A program made the position numbers and the translations under genes. Under the pieces are notes generated by a model that was not told the origin of the DNA, made no database searches, and saw only the letters and a list, made by a program, of their open reading frames with translations. Positions 2,797-53,676 of a DNA stretch of 64,000 nt are shown piece by piece (positions within the stretch are counted from its first letter, which is position 1; each line of letters starts with the position of its first letter). The stretch comes from a virus, in the IMG/VR virus record IMGVR_UViG_3300028399_000005, positions 1 to 64,000 of that record; one strand, given 5' to 3'.

Positions 2797-3622
2797 GATT
2801 TTTTAAAATTTTTTATCTTTTTTCGCGCATTTTTTCGAGAATCATGAAATCCAGTTTTTGGGTAGAAGAAGCTTCCTTCTCGGAGAATCGACGATTATTT
2901 TTTATTTTTCAGTACCCCCCGCGGTAGCCTATAGAATCAGGAATCCTACTACTAAGCCCTAAGACCCCAGAATTTTCAAAAAAAGAACCAAAAAACCTAC
3001 TATTTTTTAGATTCTTTTTTTTCAATATTTCGCGTTATTTTTCACATTATTTTCAATATCTTACTTTGCTCGGAGGCTTTCCCTTTTTTCATTTTTTACT
3101 ATTTTCCTATTATTTTTTTATTATTTTCAATACTATATACGATAGAATACTAAATCCATAACCTTTAAATATTAGCCCAATATATAATTACTAATATAAT
3201 ATATCATATATTATAATATATGATTCTCAGCTATTCCCGAAATCGGCGCCCCCTATAATAATATAATATCTAGTACAGCAGGCGGAAAACGACGTTGTCT
3301 ATCGAGGGGGGTACTGAAAAAAATAAAAAAATATAGTGATTTTTTAGAATTTAAAAGATTCAGACCGCCAGAAGCAATTCTAAAAAATGGAAAAAAAGTG
3401 AAAAATAACGCGAAAAATATGAAAAAAATACTTCAAGGGGCGACGGCGCAAAAATCGAACGTCGTGGGAGATTCCCTCTCTTCATCAGCGTCTATCGCAC
3501 CCCCCATTGAAAAATAAAAAAATAATCATCAATTTTTCAAAATTTAATACCTAAGGCGAATGTAAGACCATTTTAGAAATTGAAAAGAATATGAAAAATA
3601 ACGCGAAAAATATGAAAAAAAT
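2797..3622. repeat. Inverted repeat copy A, AT-rich non-coding block
   Basis: About 0.8 kb without genes. It aligns along its whole length, imperfectly, with the reverse complement of 50895-51695. Inside are three copies of a G6/C6 tract joined to an A/T run (near 2892, 3305 and 3498), three copies of a TTTTTCGCGTTATTTTTCA-like element (near 3022, 3395 and 3585), and a very AT-rich core (3120-3230) beside CCCCCTATAATAATATAATAT. Iterated elements around an easily melted core would suit a replication origin; recombination sites or packaging signals are alternatives. Confidence 0.85.
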
Positions 3623-3663
3623 GTTTCACGGTGTGTAGCTCGATTTTGCGGGCACGGCTTCCC

Positions 3664-27731: not shown

Positions 27732-27852
27732 GGGGCAGTAGCTCAGCCTGGGAGAGCGCGCGAGTAAAGCCCCCTTGCGCGCGCCACTCTGCGCACAGCA
27801 GATTGAGGGGGCCTCAGTGTAGTCGCGGGTTCAAATCCCGCCTGCTCCACCA
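27732..27852 (+). tRNA. tRNA-like gene, probable 43-nt intron, CCA encoded
   Basis: The acceptor stem (GGGGCAG with CTGCTCC), D arm (GCTC/GAGC around AGCCTGGGA) and T arm (GCGGG-TTCAAAT-CCCGC) are canonical, with an encoded CCA at 27850-27852. The anticodon arm is interrupted. If 27770-27812 is an intron at the usual 37/38 position, the stem is CGCGA paired with TC-GTG around one bulged A, and the loop is GTAAAGC with anticodon AAA. The putative intron has its own helix of about 8 bp (GCCCCCTT with GAGGGGGC). AAA is an unusual anticodon, so identity is left open. Confidence 0.75.
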
Positions 27853-41862: not shown

Positions 41863-43842
41863 ATGAACGAACAAGACGAATCATTCGACCCAGAGAAAGT
41901 AGTAGCGAAAATTCTCGATCTTGCGCCGAAAACAGTCCTCATCATGGGAAAGATCGGCGAGGACGAAAGAAAGGCGCTTGAGCGCCACATCAAGGAAGAA
42001 TTCAAGAAGAGCGCCGAAAAGGAGAACGCCCACGCAGAACTACTCGGTTTCGCGGACTACTACGGACGGCACCAAAAATACGAAAAAACGAAGAAAGCAT
42101 TCGGCGACCGAATCGTCGAAGCCCTTGACAGAATCGCAACAAACCAAATAGTCGACATTCTCGAAGTGTACCGCCCATTGTTGCTCTCGAAATATTACAA
42201 CTTTACGCACTTGAACAAAAAAATAGACGGGAGGATCGCAGACATTCTCGTCCCCACGAATTTCGAGCGAGTCTTTCTATCTACACTGTTCGTCGGCGAA
42301 ATAACGCACTTGGCAACAGGCGCCGAGCTCGTGGGGAGTATTTCCCGTCCAGACCTCGAATTCAAGGCGAAAGAAAGCGATTTCGACGTTCGGGCGTTTT
42401 CCACGCACGAACTCACGTTCGCAACGGCGGTCGGTTTCACGCTCGAAAAAGTGTTCAAGCGTTTGCTCGCACGCGTTACGCAAACGGCGTATGAGAACGA
42501 CGTGCCAAACGTCGTGGCGACCGTTGATCGGTTCGTAGCGTCGATTAAAGGACGAGAACTCTTGCTCGAGCTCGTCGAAGACCCTGGCTTCGACTTGCAA
42601 GTGCGGGAATGGGAGAGCCTCGGAATGCTCGATGAGTCAGTCATCGATCCTCGAGAAGCCGTCCGCGAGCACGCCCTTCAAGAACCGACGGCGTCTTTCC
42701 GAACGTTGTTCTTGCCCTTCGACTCAAGGTTTTTCTCCCGCGAGAACAAACAACGCATGCTCGACCTCTTCGAGCATGATAAAGACGGTGCTGTCCTCGT
42801 CGGCGATAGCTACGTGGCCTTGCGCGTGCTTGCGGATGACGCTACCATTAACAAGAGCTTCGTCCAGACCATTTTCATCGATCCGCCGTTCAACAAGCCG
42901 AACGAGGCGAACTACAAGTATAGCGTCAAGATCGGCGACGACGTCTGGATTGCCATGCTCCGCTCAAGGCTTCGGCTCGCAAGGGAGCTCTTGCACGAGA
43001 CGGGCTCGATCTTCGTTCGATGCGACTATGAGGGCTCTCACTACGTCCACCTTCTTCTCGACGAGATTTTCGGCAAGAAGAATTTCCGCAACGAAATCGT
43101 CGTCAAGCGCTCGAACCGCATCAAGAGCCCGACGTCTCGCTTCTTGTCGTGGCACGACGTTGTGTTCTTCTATGCGAAAAGAGCGGACAGAGCTTTTTTC
43201 AAAGAGCTTGTCGTCGATGAAGAGGCACGCAATGGCTGGCGGGGAATGGACATGCCAGGCGATTCTTACGAGGTCGTCCCCTCGGGGCTCGAGTCATTAT
43301 TCGAGCCGTGGATGCTTGAGAAAGACTCTTATGAACAGACAGTTACTCGTGCGAGGCTGTTCTTCGGAAAACCTATCATGCCCCCGCCAGGGCGCAGATT
43401 CCCTTCCCAAGCAAAAATCAACGAAGAGATCGAGAAGGGCAATATTCGCTTTTCTCGCTCGGGGCGCCCGTTGATCCGCAAGCGTGGCTACAAGGTGCTT
43501 ACCGACGATTGGACGGACATTTTCGGCTACAAGAACCGCTTCGGGTTCACGACGGAGAACAGCGAGGAACTGCTACGACGCGTGATCATGGCAACTTCGA
43601 AGGAAGAGGACGTTGTGCTCGACTTTTTCGCTGGTAGCGGGACGACCCTTGCCGTGGCGCACAAGCTCGGGCGAAAATGGGTCGGCGTAGAAATCAACGA
43701 CCACGCTTTCGAGGTGCTCATCCCCCGCATGAAGAAAGTGCTGTTCTACGACGAAGGAGAGATCAGCTCGTTGAAAGAAGTCAGAGAAAAATACAACAAA
43801 CGCCGAGCTGGCGGGGTCTTCTACTATTACTCTTATGAATAG
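41863..43842 (+). CDS. Type III Mod-like DNA methyltransferase, 659 aa
   Basis: Motif IV is FIDPPFN (about 343) and motif I VLDFFAGSGTTLAVA (about 585), in the beta-class order, as in type III modification (Mod) subunits. Between and before them are large regions that would carry sequence recognition; SIFVRCDYEGSHYVHLLLDEIFG is typical of this group. No Res subunit is nearby. The N-terminal 200 residues are helical and lysine-rich. P2-driven. Its 3' end overlaps the convergent cysH gene by 10 nt. Confidence 0.92.
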   Translation: MNEQDESFDPEKVVAKILDLAPKTVLIMGKIGEDERKALERHIKEEFKKSAEKENAHAELLGFADYYGRHQKYEKTKKAFGDRIVEALDRIATNQIVDILEVYRPLLLSKYYNFTHLNKKIDGRIADILVPTNFERVFLSTLFVGEITHLATGAELVGSISRPDLEFKAKESDFDVRAFSTHELTFATAVGFTLEKVFKRLLARVTQTAYENDVPNVVATVDRFVASIKGRELLLELVEDPGFDLQVREWESLGMLDESVIDPREAVREHALQEPTASFRTLFLPFDSRFFSRENKQRMLDLFEHDKDGAVLVGDSYVALRVLADDATINKSFVQTIFIDPPFNKPNEANYKYSVKIGDDVWIAMLRSRLRLARELLHETGSIFVRCDYEGSHYVHLLLDEIFGKKNFRNEIVVKRSNRIKSPTSRFLSWHDVVFFYAKRADRAFFKELVVDEEARNGWRGMDMPGDSYEVVPSGLESLFEPWMLEKDSYEQTVTRARLFFGKPIMPPPGRRFPSQAKINEEIEKGNIRFSRSGRPLIRKRGYKVLTDDWTDIFGYKNRFGFTTENSEELLRRVIMATSKEEDVVLDFFAGSGTTLAVAHKLGRKWVGVEINDHAFEVLIPRMKKVLFYDEGEISSLKEVREKYNKRRAGGVFYYYSYE

Positions 43843-44600
43843 CGCTTTTTGGGTTTGCCGACCACTCGGTCTCGCCATAAAAACAGCCCGCTCGTTTCCT
43901 TGCTCCCGAAGTGGTTGAACTCGCTGTCGAAAAACGTCGAGAGACGGGCGTTCTCCCATCCACCGTTGATTCTGGCGAGCTTTTCATAGACGGACGGCAC
44001 GGGGACATCGTGCTCGACAATGTAGGCCCAGACGTCTTTCGCCGTCCACTCGGCGATCGGGAACGCCGTGTCCGTGAACCCGCTCTTTTTCGGTTCTATC
44101 CACGTTCCCGTGCGTCGCTTCGCCTCGGCGATCCGCGCTCGGCGCTTCTGGGACTCTTGGGATCGTAGACCGAGGAAACAGACGTCCCAGCCGTGGCGTT
44201 TCACGGCTTCCGACAAACGGGGGAAAAACGGCGATTTAGCGATGTGTGATTCTCTTGCGGACGGTTTATCGCCCCCAGGCCTTTTCTCGTAACTATGGCG
44301 AGAAAAAGGGGCAATCTGGTCAATTCCTTGCAAGATCTCTTTCTCGATCCAACGGGGGATCAACCATTCGCCGTAGTCCCAGTGGCGAACCCAGACGTCC
44401 CTCTTGTACTGGACGACGAGATGGAGCATCGCCATGGAGTCCTTCCCGCCAGAGACGGCGACATAGGGGTTTTGATAGCTCGCCAAGACTCGGCGAATGA
44501 ACGAGCGGGACGTGGCTACCTTGCGCCGATACTCCGACGTGTTCGTGTGTAGGAGAAAGCCAGCGATGACGGGTTTCGGCATGAATTTGGACGGTTTCAT
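43833..44600 (-). CDS. cysH: CysH-like PAPS reductase-fold protein of type IV-B locus
   Basis: PP-loop ATP-pyrophosphatase fold. SGGKDS (50-55) is the PP-loop; GLRSQESQKRR (144-154) and PIAEWTAKDVWAYI (181-194) are further CysH-family motifs. The C-terminal catalytic ECGLH of true PAPS reductases is absent, so sulfate reduction is unlikely. A cysH-like gene is the known companion of type IV-B CRISPR loci; its role there is unsettled. The ATG overlaps the csf3 stop (ATGA), so it is part of the same operon. 255 residues. Confidence 0.92.
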   Translation of the reverse strand: MKPSKFMPKPVIAGFLLHTNTSEYRRKVATSRSFIRRVLASYQNPYVAVSGGKDSMAMLHLVVQYKRDVWVRHWDYGEWLIPRWIEKEILQGIDQIAPFSRHSYEKRPGGDKPSARESHIAKSPFFPRLSEAVKRHGWDVCFLGLRSQESQKRRARIAEAKRRTGTWIEPKKSGFTDTAFPIAEWTAKDVWAYIVEHDVPVPSVYEKLARINGGWENARLSTFFDSEFNHFGSKETSGLFLWRDRVVGKPKKRYS

Positions 44601-45391
44601 TGCGCAAGACCTATTTTTTGCTTTACTTGGGCGGAGAGCTCGCACTTTGCGCCGACGGGGACGCACGCGTCGATGTTTCGTCTGTCCCAGTACGGCGGTT
44701 TCCAGGCGAGGTAGGCGAAGTCGTCGTATTCGTCGCAGTAGCGCGTCGGGATGGGTCGTAGCGCTTCTTTTGTTTTCGGGTTCCAGAAGCTCGCCTTGTC
44801 GGGGTTTGGCTTGATCTCGACATGGCTGACTTCGCCGAAGCCGTAGGCGGTCTTTTTCCCGAGCCCCGTAACGTGTGCTATGAGCGATAGCAAGGAGTAG
44901 GGCTTCGCCTCGACGAAGACGTCGGCGTATCGGGCGGAAATGTAGGGGATTCTGATCGAGTAGTTCTTGAACGTCCCAGAGCCGAGGCTGATCTTGCTCT
45001 TCTTCCCGCCGATCTTGTGGGCGTCTGGCTCGTGGAAGCGTTTGTAAACATACTCGATGTTCGCCCGCTCCTCGACGTTGATGAGCTTCCCGTCGGCGTC
45101 CTTGAATAGGATGACAGAGGAGTGATAGAAGTACGTTTGGCGGATTGGCATGGGCAACGCTCGGACGCGCTTTCCGAGGGGGTCGTTCGAGGGGAGCATG
45201 TAGTAGTCTTGCCCGAGGGTGAGGCGGAGCAACATGTGCGCCACGAGCCCGTCGAAGTTGATCCACGGGTGCGTGATCATGACGGGCGCTTTCAAGTGGA
45301 ACCGCACGAGGACGTGCGCCCACTCTTCGCCTTTGAGCGTGGCGTAGTACTCCGTCGGCGTGTCCGCGAGCAAGTATTGCCGTAGGAACAT
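44597..45391 (-). CDS. csf3: Csf3 (Cas5-like) type IV CRISPR subunit
   Basis: RAMP-fold protein expected to cap the 5' end of the guide RNA in a type IV complex. 264 residues. The N-terminal region VRFHLKAPVMITHPWINFDGLVAHMLL (two pieces around residue 40) matches the Csf3 pattern of a strand then a hydrophobic helix. The late glycine-rich loop GLGKKTAYGFGEV is the RAMP signature. ATG 45391 is used, with GGGATGACG upstream; longer frames overlap csf2. Confidence 0.85.
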   Translation of the reverse strand: MFLRQYLLADTPTEYYATLKGEEWAHVLVRFHLKAPVMITHPWINFDGLVAHMLLRLTLGQDYYMLPSNDPLGKRVRALPMPIRQTYFYHSSVILFKDADGKLINVEERANIEYVYKRFHEPDAHKIGGKKSKISLGSGTFKNYSIRIPYISARYADVFVEAKPYSLLSLIAHVTGLGKKTAYGFGEVSHVEIKPNPDKASFWNPKTKEALRPIPTRYCDEYDDFAYLAWKPPYWDRRNIDACVPVGAKCELSAQVKQKIGLAQ

Positions 45392-45395
45392 AGCG

Positions 45396-46286
45396 TCATC
45401 CCTTCTTCTTGAACGATGAGAAATCGATTTTCTGGGCATCAATCGCCTGCAAGAGCGCCAAGATGTCGTCTTGATTTTCTTCGACGAATCTTAGATACGT
45501 TTCTTCTTTTCCGAGTGCGCTCAAGGCAGTCTTGTCGTAGTCTGGACGCAACGCGCCGAGCCCGATGCTTGACTTCCCGCCGACGTAGCAATTGTTCTCC
45601 CAGATTCGGAACGCTCTTCGGAAGAACGCTTCTTCGACGGGCGTGGGGTCTTCGAGGACGAAAGCGTGCGTCAGCCTCGTGCCAGGGATCAAGACCTCGT
45701 ATTCGACGAGCATTTGTTGTGCTTGTTCGCCTTCGTCCCGCTCGGCTCTGAGCTCGTCTTTGCGGGTCTGGTAAGTGTCGCTCATGAGCTCGTGGAAACT
45801 GAATTCGGCGCCCCTAACCGTTGAAGGGTCGAACGTGATCCCTTCGAGCTCCTTGCAGATCGGGAAAGCGTTCATGACCTTGAGCTTTCCCGTGAACGCT
45901 TGGTTGAGGAAGGACGAGCCGAAAACACTAATGGGGGGCAAGAGGTATCGGATGGTCTTCCTCGCTTCGAGGTTGAGCGTCCCGCTGTCCTTCGAGGACA
46001 CTTTCTCGAGGTTCCCGCCCGAGTAGAAAAAGTGGTAGAGTCTGGCGGTCTCGAATCGGTGTCTTTGGCCCTCTCTGTAGCCCACGAGGTCGAGGAAGTC
46101 CTTCATGACGAGGCGTCGCAGGCGCCCTCTGATTGCATTTCCGCTGATGTAGGGCACTTCTTGGATCCCCTTGTTCGTGATCATTTCGATTCTTCGGAAC
46201 CCGATCGTGGATCCCGTTTTTTCGTTCCCGCCGTGGTGGACGGGGGAAAGAGCTGTCAATATTCCGCTGATTTTAATTGTCTTCAT
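45396..46286 (-). CDS. csf2: Csf2 (Cas7-like) type IV backbone subunit
   Basis: Forms the helical backbone that coats guide RNA. 296 residues. Begins with SGILTALSPVHHGGNEKTG (7-25) and PYISGNAIRGRLRRLV (45-60), a pattern characteristic of Csf2, and has a C-terminal GGKSSIGLGAL glycine-rich loop. AAAGGAGTTGAG lies upstream of ATG 46286. Lies between the small-subunit genes and csf3, the usual order in type IV loci. Confidence 0.92.
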   Translation of the reverse strand: MKTIKISGILTALSPVHHGGNEKTGSTIGFRRIEMITNKGIQEVPYISGNAIRGRLRRLVMKDFLDLVGYREGQRHRFETARLYHFFYSGGNLEKVSSKDSGTLNLEARKTIRYLLPPISVFGSSFLNQAFTGKLKVMNAFPICKELEGITFDPSTVRGAEFSFHELMSDTYQTRKDELRAERDEGEQAQQMLVEYEVLIPGTRLTHAFVLEDPTPVEEAFFRRAFRIWENNCYVGGKSSIGLGALRPDYDKTALSALGKEETYLRFVEENQDDILALLQAIDAQKIDFSSFKKKG

Positions 46287-46312
46287 TCTTTTTTTCTCAA
46301 CTCCTTTTGTTC

Positions 46313-46648
46313 TTACTTTTCATGGCACGAGCAATAGCAACCGAAGGCTTTGTAGCTCACGTTGCATCGCTCGGTGCATCTTCTGTCCGAGTGATGGCGA
46401 AACTCGAACTTTTTCTTGAGCGTCCACTTGACCTTTCTCGGCGAGTAGCCTACCGAGAAAAGCCCTTCGTGGGTCTTTTCTGTGGCAACGATCTCTTGGA
46501 AAAGCTCGTATTTCTCGAGCTCGCCGACGAGCGAGGAGACAACTTCCCGCAAGCGGTTCGTGATCTCGCTCGCCACGATTTGGGCGAGGAATACAAGATC
46601 GTCCCGTGATTCTTCGCCGTGCATTGTTTCTTCCGTTTCTTCCGTCAT
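46313..46648 (-). CDS. Unknown small protein inside the csf operon, 111 aa
   Basis: Not part of the standard type IV-B gene set as I know it. Acidic helical N-terminal 60 residues, then a basic segment (RKVKWTLKKKFEF) and a C-terminal cluster CTERCNVSYKAFGCYCSCH, enough for a zinc site. The ATG overlaps the stop of the cas11-like gene. It could be an extra complex subunit, a divergent small subunit, or a regulator. Confidence 0.8.
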   Translation of the reverse strand: MTEETEETMHGEESRDDLVFLAQIVASEITNRLREVVSSLVGELEKYELFQEIVATEKTHEGLFSVGYSPRKVKWTLKKKFEFRHHSDRRCTERCNVSYKAFGCYCSCHEK

Positions 46649-47073
46649 TCTTCATCATCCTTTGCTTTTCGTTGCTTTTCCTTCCGCTTCTCGCGTAGCA
46701 ACTGCGAGTATCTTCGAGCGAGCATCACGCAGAGCTGGGACTCCGTGCGGACGGTGTCGAGGAACTCGTCGGCGTATTTCTCCGCCTCGAGGATGAGCTC
46801 TGGCTCATCATGGAGCGCTTGGATGCTCAGCTGGTTGCAGAGCTTGTTCACGAACTTTGCAACGGTCGGCTTGCGGGAAGAGTTCTTGATTCTGTGCTCG
46901 AAAATGTCCGTGGCGATCTTGGACGTGCTCATCTGGTGCCAGTTCACTTGGTAGTAGACCCTTCCGAGAAGGGCGGAGATGAGCTCGTACACTCGCTTTT
47001 TTCTTGGCGAGACCCACGAGAGGTCTTGGCCTGGCAATATTTCTTCGAGGCTAAAAGTAGATTTCTGCGCCAT
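46645..47073 (-). CDS. cas11: Probable Cas11-like small subunit
   Basis: 142 residues, almost entirely helical with a basic C-terminal tail (RRYSQLLREKRKEKQRK), as in small subunits that line the RNA groove of class 1 complexes. The identification rests on size, fold prediction by eye and its place between csf1 and csf2, not on a sequence signature. It overlaps the csf1 3' end by 23 nt. Confidence 0.65.
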   Translation of the reverse strand: MAQKSTFSLEEILPGQDLSWVSPRKKRVYELISALLGRVYYQVNWHQMSTSKIATDIFEHRIKNSSRKPTVAKFVNKLCNQLSIQALHDEPELILEAEKYADEFLDTVRTESQLCVMLARRYSQLLREKRKEKQRKAKDDEE

Positions 47074-47821
47074 AGACTTCGCCTTCTTCTTCTTTCTTTC
47101 GTTTTTTCGATTGCTTCTCGGGCTTCTTAGTATCTTTGCGGAGCGTCTTCATGGTCGTGAGCTTCTTCGGCGTATCCGTGCACTTGACGACGAGCTCCCA
47201 GGCGGGGTTCCCCGCGAACTTCTTCGCCTCGTAGTAGTGCTGTATCGCCCCGACCTCGACGAGCGTCTCGATGATCGAGCTGTTGGTCTCGAGCGTTTCG
47301 AGGCGCTTCTTCCCGAAAAATGGCATGAGCGCGTCGACGAGTCCCGTGATTTTCTCGTAGCTTCGTGGCGTGAACCGTGCGACGTCTTCTTCGAAGATCA
47401 CGACGAATCTGTTGATTGACCCCTCGTTCGACGGCGTGTTGATGGCGAACGGGTTCACGATCCATCCGTGCTTCTTGAAGCTCTTCGTTACGAAGATTGC
47501 GAAGGGCTCGTTTCGAGCGAGCGCTTCGGTGAGGACGTCCCGAAACTCGTTGAACTTGAACGCCTTGAACCTTGCGGGGGAAACAACCCAGTTCGTTTTT
47601 CGGACTGTCGCTTCTTTGAGCGCCCCCGCACAAAAAACGCAGAGCCCGTGGCCCGCTTTCAAGTGCTGGAATCCCGTGAAATTGCCCGAGACTACTCTCT
47701 TGATGTCCACGAGCTCGTCGACGGTCTCCATGCAAATATAGCACCTACCGTGGTGCTTTTCGCCCGAGATTGGCTCGATCATTTTTGCTTGTGCGAGCAG
47801 GCGTGGTATTGTGAGAATCAT
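47051..47821 (-). CDS. csf1: Csf1 (Cas8-like) type IV large subunit
   Basis: 256 residues. N-terminal zinc ribbon CYIC (27-30) and CVFC (61-64) with 30 residues between them is the hallmark of Csf1. A central alpha/beta region follows, and the C-terminus is a basic tail (KKPEKQSKKRKKEEEG). No HD domain, which argues against type IV-C. ATG 47821 is preferred over the adjacent TTG. A P2 palindrome at 47871 and a CTATTATAC box drive the whole operon. Confidence 0.88.
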   Translation of the reverse strand: MILTIPRLLAQAKMIEPISGEKHHGRCYICMETVDELVDIKRVVSGNFTGFQHLKAGHGLCVFCAGALKEATVRKTNWVVSPARFKAFKFNEFRDVLTEALARNEPFAIFVTKSFKKHGWIVNPFAINTPSNEGSINRFVVIFEEDVARFTPRSYEKITGLVDALMPFFGKKRLETLETNSSIIETLVEVGAIQHYYEAKKFAGNPAWELVVKCTDTPKKLTTMKTLRKDTKKPEKQSKKRKKEEEGEVYGAEIYF

Positions 47822-47870
47822 CAAGCAATCGACGATTTATCGAGAATCGCTGTATAATAGCCTTGCTCGC

Positions 47871-48158: not shown

Positions 48159-48290
48159 TCAGAGCTCGAGGTTGTCGAAGAATTCGCTAAATAAGACCGC
48201 TAAGAGCTCATCGTCGAACTCTGACAGCGCCTTCGCTTCGTAAAGCTTTGAAGAATTGTCGTCTTTTGAGAAGTTGTCGTTCTCGCTCAT
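48159..48290 (-). CDS. Acidic microprotein, 43 aa
   Basis: ATG 48290 is preceded by a structured leader and a P1 promoter. Acidic, with phenylalanine and leucine in a C-terminal helix (FDDELLAVLFSEFFDNLEL). Its size, promoter and leader match the two following genes. Family not recognised; a small inhibitor is possible. Confidence 0.7.
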   Translation of the reverse strand: MSENDNFSKDDNSSKLYEAKALSEFDDELLAVLFSEFFDNLEL

Positions 48291-48292
48291 GG

Positions 48293-48347
48293 TACATCCC
48301 TGTCGTCGGGCGGGTCTCCTTCCCCCTTGCGGGGGTAACCCACCAAT
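48293..48347 (-). ncRNA. Structured 5' leader, copy 1
   Basis: From the P1 start site: outer helix GGTGGG with CCCGCC, inner helix CCCCC-GCAA-GGGGG, an AAGGAGA internal loop strand, then CGACGAC and the start codon. Outer-helix bases differ but still pair in the two other copies. Confidence 0.75.
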
Positions 48348-48383
48348 ATAATATAGGAAGGAGAAATATAAAAAGGTTGTGGT
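48345..48383 (-). promoter_or_regulatory. P1 promoter feeding structured leader
   Basis: ACCACAACCTTTTTATATTT then CCTATATTATATTGG. Confidence 0.8.
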
Positions 48384-48490
48384 AAAGGTAATCAATATGT
48401 TTGTATTTTTCTGATAAAAAATAAGAGAAACTTGGCAGGCGGTTTATTACAAAAAAATGACAAAAAATAGCGCGACGGAAGCGGTAGCAA

Positions 48491-48523
48491 AGAAAGAAAA
48501 GAAGGGGCGAAGCAAAGCTCCGC
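48491..48523 (-). terminator. Hairpin terminator after 135-aa gene
   Basis: GCGGAGC-TTT-GCTTCGC stem then CCCCTTCTTTTCTTTC on the minus strand; similar to the element at 48101. Confidence 0.6.
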
Positions 48524-48550
48524 AAAGTTAGGAAGGCAAAGTTGAAGGGC

Positions 48551-48958
48551 TTATAAGTCCAGTTTTCTACCGTATGCTTCGAGGAGCGCCGTAAGCTCCA
48601 AATCTATTAGGCCTCTCTCATTTGAGAGGAAGCCCAATAGATTCAAGGTATGGCGGGCGTCTAAGAAGTCGTCCACCTTCGATCGGAAGGCGATCCGAAG
48701 GAAGGTATAGACGATGTGGTAGGCGAGGTCTCGGGCGGTCATGCCCTTCGTCTCATAGACCGCTTGTGCGAGCTCGAAGGCTCTCACAATGGTCTCGTTC
48801 ATCTCGGCTTCGAACTCTTCTGGATTCATGCGTTGCGATAGCGCAGACGCAATGAAGTCCTGGAAGAGCCCGTCTATTTCGTTCAAAGCGTGCTCGTCTA
48901 TCGGGGCGTCGCCCGATAATGGACGGACACGCTTAGCGTCGAACGTTTCGTCTGCCAT
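48551..48958 (-). CDS. Hypothetical protein, 135 aa
   Basis: Helical, acidic protein; the ATG at 48958 follows a structured leader (copy 2) and a P1 promoter. No family recognised. The longer frame through the promoter is rejected. Confidence 0.75.
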   Translation of the reverse strand: MADETFDAKRVRPLSGDAPIDEHALNEIDGLFQDFIASALSQRMNPEEFEAEMNETIVRAFELAQAVYETKGMTARDLAYHIVYTFLRIAFRSKVDDFLDARHTLNLLGFLSNERGLIDLELTALLEAYGRKLDL

Positions 48959-49016
48959 AGTCCATCTCTCCGTCGTCGGGTGGTGTTCCTTCCCCGCATG
49001 GGGGTGCACCACCAAT
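48959..49016 (-). ncRNA. Structured 5' leader, copy 2
   Basis: Outer helix GGTGGT with ACCACC (perfect), inner CCCC-GGGG helix with a CATGC loop, AAGGAAC internal strand, then CGACGAC before the ATG. Compensating changes relative to copy 1. Confidence 0.75.
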
Positions 49017-49052
49017 ATAATATAGGAAGTGGTAATATATAAACTTTGTGGG
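49014..49052 (-). promoter_or_regulatory. P1 promoter feeding structured leader
   Basis: CCACAAAGTTTATATATTAC then CCTATATTATATTGG. Confidence 0.8.
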
Positions 49053-49336
49053 AAATTGGTAGATAATTGCACTCTAAAAGTGTTGCGAGGAGCAAGAAAA
49101 CGAATCTCGCCTGTCCGCCCGCTGGGGGTGGCGGGTGTTTACGTCAATCAAACGTCTATTCTTTTAGACAAGCGACTGATTGGGGTACTATTTACGCCAA
49201 TTTGAAAAGTTGCTAATTAATAAAGGAATTAATTAACAAAACTTGCAGGGAATTCTGCGTGCGGAAAAATATAATCATTAAAAAACGGCGATCGATCGAA
49301 TCAAGGAAAGAAGAAGGCGAAGAAAGGCGGGGTTTG
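49053..49336. other. Non-coding gap upstream of P1 unit
   Basis: About 280 nt with no supported gene. Contains a G/C inverted segment (CCGCCC near 49116, GGCGGG near 49129) and, at its right end, the C/T-rich end of the minus-strand transcript of the 133-aa gene. Confidence 0.4.
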
Positions 49337-49738
49337 TCAAAGGTTGTTATAAACTATCTCGAGCGCTCTTCGGATTGTGAGTGTCTTCGGTGGGCGCTTG
49401 TAAGGGGCGTAGCCGACGTCCCATACGAGCGTCCCTCGAATGCTAACCCGTGCACTCCCCTCGAAGAGGAGCTCGTCGTCTGGACTGTACGCCTTGACAA
49501 CGATGTCGTGCACGGTAACGCTGTATTCCGTGCCAGGCCATGGTCTGCCCTTGTAGCGCTCGACTTCTACAAGGGCGATCTCGAGCCGTACCGAGCCCTT
49601 GTTCGAGTCCACGAAAAGCGTGAGCTCGTCAAGGGCGTCGTAGTCGTCGCGTAATACGAGGGCTACCCCCTCGAAGCCGTTCCCAGCCACGAAGGAGTAG
49701 CCCTTCAACTTAGAGTTATAGGCTAACTTCATTCTCAT
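49337..49738 (-). CDS. Beta-rich hypothetical protein, 133 aa
   Basis: Beta-strand-rich with hydrophobic/charged alternation (VALVLRDDYDALDELTLFVD, then VTVHDIVVKAYSPDDELLFEG). ATG 49738 has GGTGATACT upstream and follows structured leader copy 3. The C/T-rich tract with CCCCGCC after the stop is a likely terminator. Family not recognised. Confidence 0.75.
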   Translation of the reverse strand: MRMKLAYNSKLKGYSFVAGNGFEGVALVLRDDYDALDELTLFVDSNKGSVRLEIALVEVERYKGRPWPGTEYSVTVHDIVVKAYSPDDELLFEGSARVSIRGTLVWDVGYAPYKRPPKTLTIRRALEIVYNNL

Positions 49739-49740
49739 AG

Positions 49741-49793
49741 TATCACCGTCGCCGAGCGAGTCTCCTTCCCCCATAAGGGGGTAACCCGCTAAT
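49741..49793 (-). ncRNA. Structured 5' leader, copy 3
   Basis: Outer helix AGCGGG with CTCGCT (one G-T pair), inner CCCCC-TTAT-GGGGG, the same AAGGAGA strand, then CGGCGAC. Covaries with copies 1 and 2. Confidence 0.75.
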
Positions 49794-49829
49794 ATAATAT
49801 ACGCAACGGTAATATATAAGTTTTGTGGG
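49791..49829 (-). promoter_or_regulatory. P1 promoter feeding structured leader
   Basis: CCACAAAACTTATATATTAC then a CGTATATTATATTAG block. Confidence 0.8.
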
Positions 49830-49894: not shown

Positions 49895-50251
49895 CTAAGA
49901 ATGATGACGAACGCCTTGTTCGCGAAGGTCGTCGATGACCTCGGCAAGCATCTCTTGAGCCTCGTCGATGGTCGCAAGCATCCCTTCGAGGACGGCGAAC
50001 TCGTCGAGCTCGGGGTTCCCAGAAAAGACGCGAACCCAAGGAACGACGGGCATCATGACGAAATCGTCGTAGCGCAGAACTGCGATGACTTTCTCAGTCG
50101 TCTTGTCCTTGACCGTAGCGGTCTTCGCAGTGCGTTCGTACTCTATAATTACCCTGTCAAATTCCTCAACAGCATCGAGCGCTTGGTATATCCTATCTAT
50201 AACGACATTGCTAATGTCGAACGACGATTCTATATAGATCTGTTTCATCAT
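49895..50251 (-). CDS. Hypothetical protein, 118 aa
   Basis: Acidic alpha/beta protein ending in a helix. ATG 50251 (or 50248) follows a weak P1-like element. Divergent from the P1 gene at 50355. Family not recognised. Confidence 0.75.
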   Translation of the reverse strand: MMKQIYIESSFDISNVVIDRIYQALDAVEEFDRVIIEYERTAKTATVKDKTTEKVIAVLRYDDFVMMPVVPWVRVFSGNPELDEFAVLEGMLATIDEAQEMLAEVIDDLREQGVRHHS

Positions 50252-50289
50252 GACTAATAATACCAGCCCAGAATACAAAAACTTTGTGG
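50249..50289 (-). promoter_or_regulatory. P1-like promoter (weak)
   Basis: CCACAAAGTTTTTGTATTC then a GGTATTATTAGTCATG block. Confidence 0.5.
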
Positions 50290-50873: not shown

Positions 50874-50894
50874 CGCGTCGACAGGCGGTGTACT

Positions 50895-51695
50895 ATTTTT
50901 TTCATATTTTTCGCGTTATTTTTCATATTCTTTTCATTTTTTAATTCCTATCGAGAAGGTCTGAATCTATTAAATTCTAAAGAATCGATGATTATTTTTT
51001 ATTTTTCAATGGGGGGTGCGATAGGCATAATTATGTTCCTCGAGAATCTACGAAGCGCCGAAACTCGGAAAAACAGCAACAAGAGATTTTTTTGACTTTT
51101 TCGCGTTATTTTTCACATTCTTTTCAATTTCTAAAATTGTTTCTTACGCTTTGAACCCTTTAAATTTTGGATTTCCCATGATTATTTTTTATTTTTCAGT
51201 ACCCCCTGCGATAGGCATGCCCCATTGGTGCCCCCTATAATAATATAATATAGGGTACAGGCAGTGGCGGTTTCGGGAATAGTTTGGAATCATATACTTT
51301 AGTATATGATATATAATTAAGAATAAGAATCTGGGTTGATTCTAACCTATCGTATATAGTATTGAAAATAATAAAAAAATAATAAGAAAATAGTAAAAAA
51401 TGAAAAATTAGAAGCCCTTGTAGGCATTTAGAAAACTGAAAATAATGTGAAAAATAACGCGAAATATTGAAAAAAATAAACTTGGAATATAGGGTATGAT
51501 TTTTGCTTTTTTCTTAGTTTTTTAGGGTTTCAGGCTTTGGTATTAGGAATCAAGAATCTATACGCGATCGCGGGGGGTACTGAAAAATAAAAAATAATCG
51601 TCGATTCTTTGGAGTCATGAGTTGAGCGTTGTGTTTATTGCGATTCATGATTCTGAAAAAAATGCGCGAAAAAAGGTAAAAAATTTTAAAAAATC
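50895..51695. repeat. Inverted repeat copy B, AT-rich non-coding block
   Basis: Reverse-complement partner of 2797-3622. It keeps all the sub-elements: G/C6 tract plus A/T run near 50990, 51178 and 51570; CGCGTTATTTTTCA-type elements near 50900, 51097 and 51445; and the AT core near 51290-51400. The most conserved parts are those iterated elements, which suggests protein binding. The two copies enclose about 47 kb. Confidence 0.85.
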
Positions 51696-52523: not shown

Positions 52524-53676
52524 ATGGGAATCCGATTCATTCCAAAAAAAGAATGTGATGTGGGTTTAGCTCGAAATGGAGTATTGGACTTCGGTAAAAA
52601 GAAACTTCCTACTCCCTTTCTTTGGTTTGGCTTATCAAATCGAGAATCTGTAGTTTTTCAAAAAACAGTATTTGAAAGTGCGATGATCGAAGGAATCATG
52701 GCAAATGCATACGACCTTATGTTTCAAGATAGGACTGGCTCTCGAACTGAAATGGTCAAAGAATTGTCTCGCTCAGGGCTCGTAGTAAAATGTGATAGCG
52801 GGGGTTACCAAATACTTAAGAGAGGGAAAAAAATCGATCGATCCAAAGTTCTGAGGTTTCAAGAAGATTTGAATTGCGATTTGATGGTTCAACTCGATTA
52901 TCCCATATTAGGTTCTGATCCTCGAGAACTTAAGAAAAAACATATTGATAAAACCCTCAATAATCTGGAATATGCTTTGAAAACAGCTAATCGTCCAGAA
53001 AGAATTGTTCCAACTATTCATGGACACGATTCCGAGTTATTGCGTTATCAAGCAAAAAAAAATTACAGATCTCCTTGGCGAAACCCCGCCTATTATTAGT
53101 GTTGGTTCTTTGGTTCCTCTACTTTTTAATTCAAAAGGAGCAAAAGGGGTTGGAGGTAAAGCAAAAGCTTTGGAAGTTATAAGGATTGTTCGAAAACTTT
53201 TTCCAAAAACAATGATTCATGCTCTCGGTATTGGGGGCGCTCTTACATATCTCGCTATATATTTTGGCGCAGATAGTTTCGATAACAACGGTTGGATACA
53301 AAAAACTGGTTTCGGCGTAATTCAAGTTCCTGGATCATCGGATCGGTTTCTTGGAACCCCGCCGAATGGCAGAAAGAAAATTGATACTGACGAAATAGCC
53401 TATCATAGATGGCTTGAATGTGTGTGCCCAGCTTGTAGGAGTTCTTCTAATAGAAGTGTATTCATTGGACGAGATGAGAGCGCAAGGCTAAATCGAGGAA
53501 TACATAACGCCTATACATTTCAAGCGGAAATTTGGAGAGTAAGGAGATATATCCATGAAGGCCAATATATCAACTTTATAAAAGAGAGAATGAAAAATTC
53601 TATATATTTGCGGATTTTACAAGAGGAATTAAATCGTAACGATCATGAAAAAATATTTAACGATGTGTGGTTTTAG
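52524..53676 (+). CDS. dpdA: DpdA/TGT-like 7-deazaguanine transglycosylase, frameshifted
   Basis: Queuine/archaeosine tRNA-guanine transglycosylase fold; DpdA relatives exchange guanine for 7-deazaguanines in DNA and protect viral genomes from restriction. Frame 1 carries KCDSGGYQIL (nucleophile region, about 90) and LMVQLDYPILGSD (about 125). Frame 2 carries ISVGSLVPLL, GIGGALTYLAIYFGADSFD and a late CVCPAC. The join is at a run of nine A (about 53047-53055); eight A would give one frame. The gene is markedly more AT-rich than its neighbours, a sign of recent transfer. No queC/D/E/folE partners are seen, so the base would come from the host. Confidence 0.88.

What the first reader, a model, noticed from the sequence alone, without database searches (positions are those of the whole stretch)
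48293..49793. A structured RNA leader repeated three times with compensatory changes
Three adjacent P1 genes share a 50-58 nt leader: an outer 6-bp helix, an asymmetric loop with AAGGA(G/A), an inner C4-5/G4-5 hairpin, then CGACGAC or CGGCGAC and the start codon. The outer helix is GGTGGG/CCCGCC, GGTGGT/ACCACC and AGCGGG/CTCGCT, so pairing is kept while sequence changes. The three proteins downstream are not obviously alike. This looks like a new cis-regulatory RNA, perhaps a protein-binding site, translation switch or processing signal. Most other P1 genes are leaderless, which makes it stand out.
Basis: partly seen in the sequence, partly recalled or inferred. Interest (0 to 1): 0.88.

Follow-up and report, generated by a model that had tools for sequence, protein, structure and literature searches.

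The report
Three matching RNA hairpins starting genes
In an unusual archaeal virus, three neighbouring but unrelated genes each begin their messenger RNA with the same folded hairpin, kept in shape while its letters changed, which suggests a shared RNA control signal not seen in any other sequence searched.

Summary
On the minus strand of an 83.9-kb archaeal tailed virus, three consecutive one-gene transcription units carry a homologous 52-55-nt leader. Four outer pairs change on both sides and 23 of 24 outer cells pair. A model built from copies 1 and 3 finds copy 2 at E 3e-9 and nothing else in the virus. The helix starts exactly at the predicted first transcript base: promoter spacing is the same as in the leaderless genes, whose starts fold weakly. 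The downstream proteins are unrelated. No copy was found in viral contigs, GTDB genomes, phages, plasmids, Rfam, or 19 viruses with a related type IV CRISPR protein, so covariation rests on three paralogous copies only. [quoted passage not shown] A plain 5'-end stabiliser is the main rival. Function is inferred.

The parts
48345..48381 (-). P1 promoter of unit 1 (CACAACCTTTTTATA ... TATATTATATT)
   Evidence: pattern match, 0 expected by chance
48291..48344 (-). leader RNA of copy 1 (54 nt); hairpin 48309-48344, CGACGAC 48302-48308
   Evidence: +1 predicted from promoter spacing, not mapped
48159..48290 (-). gene of unit 1, 43 aa acidic protein, no family
49014..49050 (-). P1 promoter of unit 2
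48959..49013 (-). leader RNA of copy 2 (55 nt); hairpin 48979-49013, CGACGAC 48972-48978
   Evidence: found by a model built from copies 1 and 3, E 3.3e-9
48551..48958 (-). gene of unit 2, 135 aa, predicted all-helical, no family
49791..49827 (-). P1 promoter of unit 3
49739..49790 (-). leader RNA of copy 3 (52 nt); hairpin 49755-49790, CGGCGAC 49748-49754
49337..49738 (-). gene of unit 3, 133 aa, predicted mostly strands (low-confidence model), no family
43833..47824 (-). type IV-B CRISPR-Cas-like locus downstream on the same strand: csf1 47051-47824, cas11 46645-47073, unknown 46313-46648, csf2 45396-46286, csf3 44597-45442, cysH-like from about 44600 to 43833
   Evidence: PADLOC E 9.5e-21, 9.2e-24, 4e-65, 1.7e-43 and PAPS-reductase-like matches

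Best explanation
A virus-specific 5'-terminal RNA element shared by three adjacent single-gene transcription units. Shown by sequence: a common P1 promoter module, a hairpin that begins at the predicted +1 base, an outer helix kept by compensatory changes, and an invariant core (A / AAGGA internal loop on a C4-5/G4-5 stem). Inferred: the core is recognised by an RNA-binding protein, viral or host, so that the three small genes are switched together after transcription, by changing access of the ribosome to the start site about 15-20 nt downstream of the hairpin and/or the life of the mRNA. It also turns what would be a leaderless start into a leadered one.
For: Structure and covariation. Core substitutions are 0/16 (copies 1-3), 1/16 (1-2) and 1/16 (2-3), against 7/20, 11/20 and 14/20 in outer helix plus apical loop; Fisher P 0.011, 0.0035, 0.0001. 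So the internal loop and inner stem are held while the rest varies, which is the pattern of a recognition site rather than of mere stability. Only 3 of 17 P1 starts carry it and they are adjacent. The proteins downstream are unrelated, so what is kept is the control region. The hairpin is predicted to stay folded at 60-85 C.
Against: Only three paralogous copies, no homologue elsewhere. No candidate binding protein was identified. The hairpin does not cover the start codon, so blocking would have to be indirect. CGACGAC is a common 7-mer in this genome (63 occurrences), so its conservation means less than it seems. No transcript data exist.
Confidence: 0.4

Rival explanations
1. A plain 5'-terminal stabilising hairpin: a blunt stem at the very end of the mRNA hinders 5'-to-3' exonucleases (aCPSF2/RNase J type) or end-binding factors, with no specific ligand.
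For: Pairing includes the +1 base in all three copies, and the +1 change G to A is matched by C to U at its partner. 5'-to-3' mRNA decay by aCPSF2 is known in Sulfolobus (PMC3792030), and aIF2-gamma stabilises mRNAs at the 5'-triphosphate end (abstract of PMC3936769).
Against: Does not explain why AAGGA, the opposing A and the C/G stem are invariant while the outer helix and apical loop vary, nor why only three adjacent genes use it.
Confidence: 0.28
2. Recent copying of a promoter-plus-leader cassette onto neighbouring genes, with little function left in the leader; similarity reflects descent.
For: A 90-nt block of promoter plus leader is repeated (64-77% identity). Promoter and leader have different nearest relatives (promoter of copies 2-3 alike 39/46; leader of copies 1-3 alike at all but 8 of 46 columns), so modules have been exchanged.
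Against: Under no selection the outer helix should have lost about a third to half of its pairs at this divergence (mean 4.1 and 5.3 of 8 expected, 7 and 8 seen), and changes should not avoid the core. Flanking sequence has diverged beyond alignment.
Confidence: 0.13
3. A DNA-level operator: a dimeric repressor binds the inverted repeat just downstream of the start site.
For: Dyad symmetry sits exactly where archaeal repressors block RNA polymerase (general knowledge); CCCC...GGGG half-sites are invariant.
Against: Half-site spacing changes by 1 nt in copy 2. The outer arms change sequence rather than keep a consensus. Copies 1 and 3 pair 13/13 on the sense strand and 11/13 on the antisense because of G-U pairs, although copy 2 goes the other way (11 against 12).
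Confidence: 0.1
4. The leader is coding: a leaderless GTG at +2 starts an upstream peptide (about 18 codons, TGA overlapping the ATG of unit 1) or an N-terminal extension.
For: GTG stands in copies 1 and 2 exactly where leaderless genes have ATG, and the frame is open into the gene in copies 2 and 3.
Against: Copy 3 has GCG there. Copy 1 is in another frame than its gene. Copy 2 has a 1-nt indel inside the hairpin. Of 7 differences between copies 1 and 3 only one is at a third codon position.
Confidence: 0.05
5. The hairpins are the cognate RNA of the neighbouring type IV-B Csf complex, which has no CRISPR array noticed here.
For: Csf1-Cas11-Csf2-Csf3-CysH lie immediately downstream. The RNA that type IV-B Csf3 would recognise is unknown (PMC7937560).
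Against: No such leader in 19 viral records and one Thermococcus plasmid with related csf2. The known type IV-B complex binds RNA without sequence preference (PMC7937560). Copies sit 669 and 777 nt apart at gene starts, not as an array.
Confidence: 0.03

Closest known systems
Archaeal L7Ae mRNA leader with kink-turn (PMC6298567)
   Same: Short protein-responsive stem-loop with an asymmetric purine-rich internal loop in an archaeal mRNA leader.
   Different: The tandem G.A/A.G core of a kink-turn cannot form (A.U or A.C at the second position). The L7Ae leader is reported unfolded without protein, whereas this one is predicted to be stably folded. Sits before three unrelated viral genes, not l7ae.
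T4 gene 32 and RegA translational operators (PMC3014915)
   Same: Virus-encoded post-transcriptional control of viral genes through mRNA leaders.
   Different: No pseudoknot found here. RegA sites are unstructured and overlap the AUG. No repressor identified.
5'-terminal stabilising stem-loops of bacterial and phage mRNAs (e.g. ompA leader; general knowledge)
   Same: A hairpin at the 5' end of the transcript with a free ribosome site downstream.
   Different: Has an invariant internal-loop core; host decay machinery unknown.
Fuxivirus and other elements with type IV-B CRISPR-Cas (PMC10848311; Thermococcus nautili plasmid NZ_OX281346.1)
   Same: Similar csf1-cas11-csf2-csf3-cysH cluster (csf2 43% identical to the T. 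nautili plasmid protein).
   Different: Records with csf2 relatives that could be searched carry neither this promoter nor this leader. The Fuxivirus genome itself was not identified among them.

Membership tests
Any Rfam 15 RNA family | Covariance-model match at or above the gathering score | tested here: not met
   No match in the leaders, even at E up to 10
Kink-turn / L7Ae-type leader | Three-nucleotide bulge followed by tandem sheared G.A and A.G pairs | tested here: not met
   AAG bulge and one G.A are possible, but the second pair would be A.U (copies 1, 3) or A.C (copy 2); read from the alignment
Protein-binding translational operator | Conserved core contacted by a protein while supporting helices covary | tested here: inconclusive
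   Conservation pattern fits; binding not testable here
Protein-binding translational operator | Binding changes translation of the downstream gene | not testable with these tools
   needs reporter and binding assays
5'-end mRNA stabiliser | Helix at or within a few nt of the mapped 5' end | tested here: inconclusive
   Helix starts at the predicted +1 in all three; 5' end not mapped
Upstream leader peptide | Open frame with start codon kept in all copies and mostly synonymous change | tested here: not met
   Start lost in copy 3, indel in copy 2, differences mostly at first and second codon positions
CRISPR repeat / crRNA source of the type IV-B locus | Same-sequence repeats spaced by short unique spacers near cas genes | tested here: not met
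   Three copies 669 and 777 nt apart, each at a gene start

The most novel reading that the evidence does not exclude
A dedicated RNA-operator regulon of an archaeal tailed virus: one RNA-binding protein reads a 5'-terminal hairpin shared by three accessory genes.
Probability: 0.05. Interest if true: 0.85.

Novelty: new variant of a known kind. Interest (0 to 1): 0.45.

Why it matters
Post-transcriptional control in archaeal viruses is little explored, and most genes with this promoter in this virus appear leaderless. A short structured leader used by three unrelated neighbours would be a compact, testable model of an RNA operator and of how leadered and leaderless starts are mixed in one virus. 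Its place beside a viral type IV-B CRISPR locus also gives a natural candidate to test for RNA recognition by that poorly understood complex.

Tried and rejected
A first promoter-pattern scan used a spacer one base too long; corrected and checked on the window, the scan gave 13 single hits, mostly in AT-rich contigs, judged chance. Copy-2 protein, capsid protein and PolB against viral contigs, and RFC against genome contigs, found no close relative. The 19 viral loci with csf2 relatives were searched with the model: no match (control on the own record). No shared family or fold for the three proteins. Rejected from sequence: kink-turn, leader peptide, CRISPR repeat. A match between the copy-1 promoter (TCTCCTTCC) and the leader loop (GGAAGGAGA) is not kept in copies 2 and 3 and lies upstream of the start, so it was dropped.

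Full report
What the window is. The window is 64 kb of an 83,942-bp virus record. Its proteins resemble those of archaeal tailed viruses: PolB (nearest named hits haloviral), a replication factor C small subunit, and a terminase. No close relative was found in the collections searched. A type IV-B CRISPR-Cas-like locus (csf1, cas11, csf2, csf3, cysH-like) lies at 47824-43833 on the minus strand. Csf2 is 43% identical to a protein of a Thermococcus nautili plasmid. A similar cluster is published for Fuxivirus, a hot-spring virus of Bathyarchaeia (PMC10848311), so an archaeal host is likely, but it is not identified.

The observation. Three minus-strand genes upstream of that locus share a promoter and leader block repeated at 669 and 777 nt. 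With the TATATTATATT box as anchor, the predicted RNAs start at 48344, 49013 and 49790. Copy 1 reads GGUGGGUU A CCCCC GCAA GGGGG AAGGA GACCCGCC CGACGAC..., copy 2 GGUGGUGC A CCCCC AUGC GGGG AAGGA ACACCACC CGACGAC..., copy 3 AGCGGGUU A CCCCC UUAU GGGGG AAGGA GACUCGCU CGGCGAC.... Each leader is 52-55 nt long.

Is it more than chance? A model made of copies 1 and 3 finds copy 2 at 42 bits (E 3.3e-9 in the 84 kb of the virus) and then only noise. The stored alignment pairs in 97% of cells; sliding the partner by 1-3 columns gives 44-62%. Four outer pairs change on both sides. The shuffle control is only suggestive with three rows (32/500 and 60/500). A simulation with the observed numbers of substitutions gives P about 0.03 and 0.01 for the pairing kept between copies 1-2 and 1-3, weaker with transition bias (0.1 and 0.03). 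I take the structure as very probable but not proven.

Where the structure sits. Seventeen promoter-like sites of this class exist in the whole virus. The base after TATATTATATT is the G of GATG in the leaderless genes, so it is very near the transcript start. In the three leaders the outer helix begins at exactly this base. The first 38 nt fold at -17.6 to -22.9 kcal/mol, the other 14 starts at -0.1 to -7.9; about 1.4% of random 38-mers of this genome form a comparable end-to-end hairpin. The element is thus a hairpin at the 5' end of the mRNA, predicted to stay folded up to about 85 C, with the ATG about 15-20 nt beyond it. Copy 3 has GGTGAT and copy 2 GGAG before the ATG, like Shine-Dalgarno sites; copy 1 has only a weak one.

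What is conserved. Core positions (A12, the C/G stem, AAGGA) differ at 0, 1 and 1 of 16 positions in the three comparisons, while the outer helix plus apical loop differ at 7, 11 and 14 of 20 (Fisher P 0.011, 0.0035, 0.0001). The core is held and the supporting helix covaries. This favours recognition by a protein (or a ligand) over mere stability, but the inner stem never varies and so gives no covariation evidence of its own. CGACGAC is frequent in this genome (63 times) and is weak evidence.

What it is not. It is not coding: the GTG that could serve as a leaderless start is lost in copy 3, copy 2 has an indel inside the hairpin, and the differences between copies 1 and 3 avoid third codon positions. 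It matches no Rfam family. It lacks the second sheared pair of a kink-turn. It is not a CRISPR array. A DNA operator is less likely because of G-U pairs on the sense strand in copies 1 and 3 and changed half-site spacing in copy 2, but it is not excluded.

Genes controlled. The proteins have 43, 135 and 133 residues, match no Pfam, NCBIfam, PADLOC or PHROG family, and do not align to each other (copies 1 and 3 were not compared directly). The second is predicted all-helical (pLDDT 65), the third mostly strands (pLDDT 48). Whatever is kept is the control region, not the gene. The models for genes 2 and 3 were run with one extra N-terminal residue.

Search for homologues. None was found in viral contigs, GTDB genomes, phages, plasmids, or 19 viral records with a csf2 relative (positive control). 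Records very near the window may be left out of the collections, and metagenomes could not be scanned, so absence is not proof of uniqueness.

Mechanism. I commit to a shared 5'-terminal RNA operator: one trans-acting RNA-binding protein reads the AAGGA core in three mRNAs and changes their translation or lifetime together (0.4). Shown: structure signal, position, restriction to three adjacent units, conserved core. Inferred: the protein, the direction of control, and the effect. A plain 5'-end stabiliser is the main rival (0.28), supported by the known 5'-to-3' decay in archaea (PMC3792030) and by pairing of the +1 base.

Verdict. The interpretation as a new cis-acting RNA is supported, its function is open, and the covariation support could not be extended beyond the three copies. 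The element is probably specific to this virus or its unsampled kin.

Noticed in passing
43833-47824, minus strand: A near-complete type IV-B CRISPR-Cas-like locus (csf1, cas11, csf2, csf3, cysH-like, plus an unknown 111-aa gene) in an archaeal tailed virus, with no CRISPR array noticed nearby.
   Followed up: partly
about 2890-3640 and 50890-51610: Two intergenic repeat clusters about 48 kb apart in inverted orientation (72% identity over 346 nt), each with palindromes and several copies of an AAAAATAACGCGAAAAATATGAAAAAAATA motif. A central segment (CCCCCTATAATAATATAATAT) seems flipped between the two; possible origins or recombination sites.
   Followed up: partly
27732-27849, plus strand: A tRNA-like gene (Rfam 42 bits) with an intron. 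ARAGORN calls it tRNA-Cys with a 32-nt intron, but the anticodon is uncertain.
   Followed up: partly
52524-53676, plus strand: A tRNA-guanine transglycosylase-like protein (Pfam TGT, E 2e-8) split over two overlapping frames; it may be a DpdA-like DNA-modifying enzyme or carry a frameshift.
   Followed up: no
36713, 62207 (plus) and 15098 (minus): A third start type with this promoter: 9-11-nt leaders with GAGGAA before the ATG, so one promoter class serves leaderless, short-leadered and hairpin-leadered genes.
   Followed up: partly
49895-50278, minus strand: A fourth gene next to the three units (118-127 aa) has a similar CCACAAAGTTTTTGTATT promoter but no structured leader.
   Followed up: no
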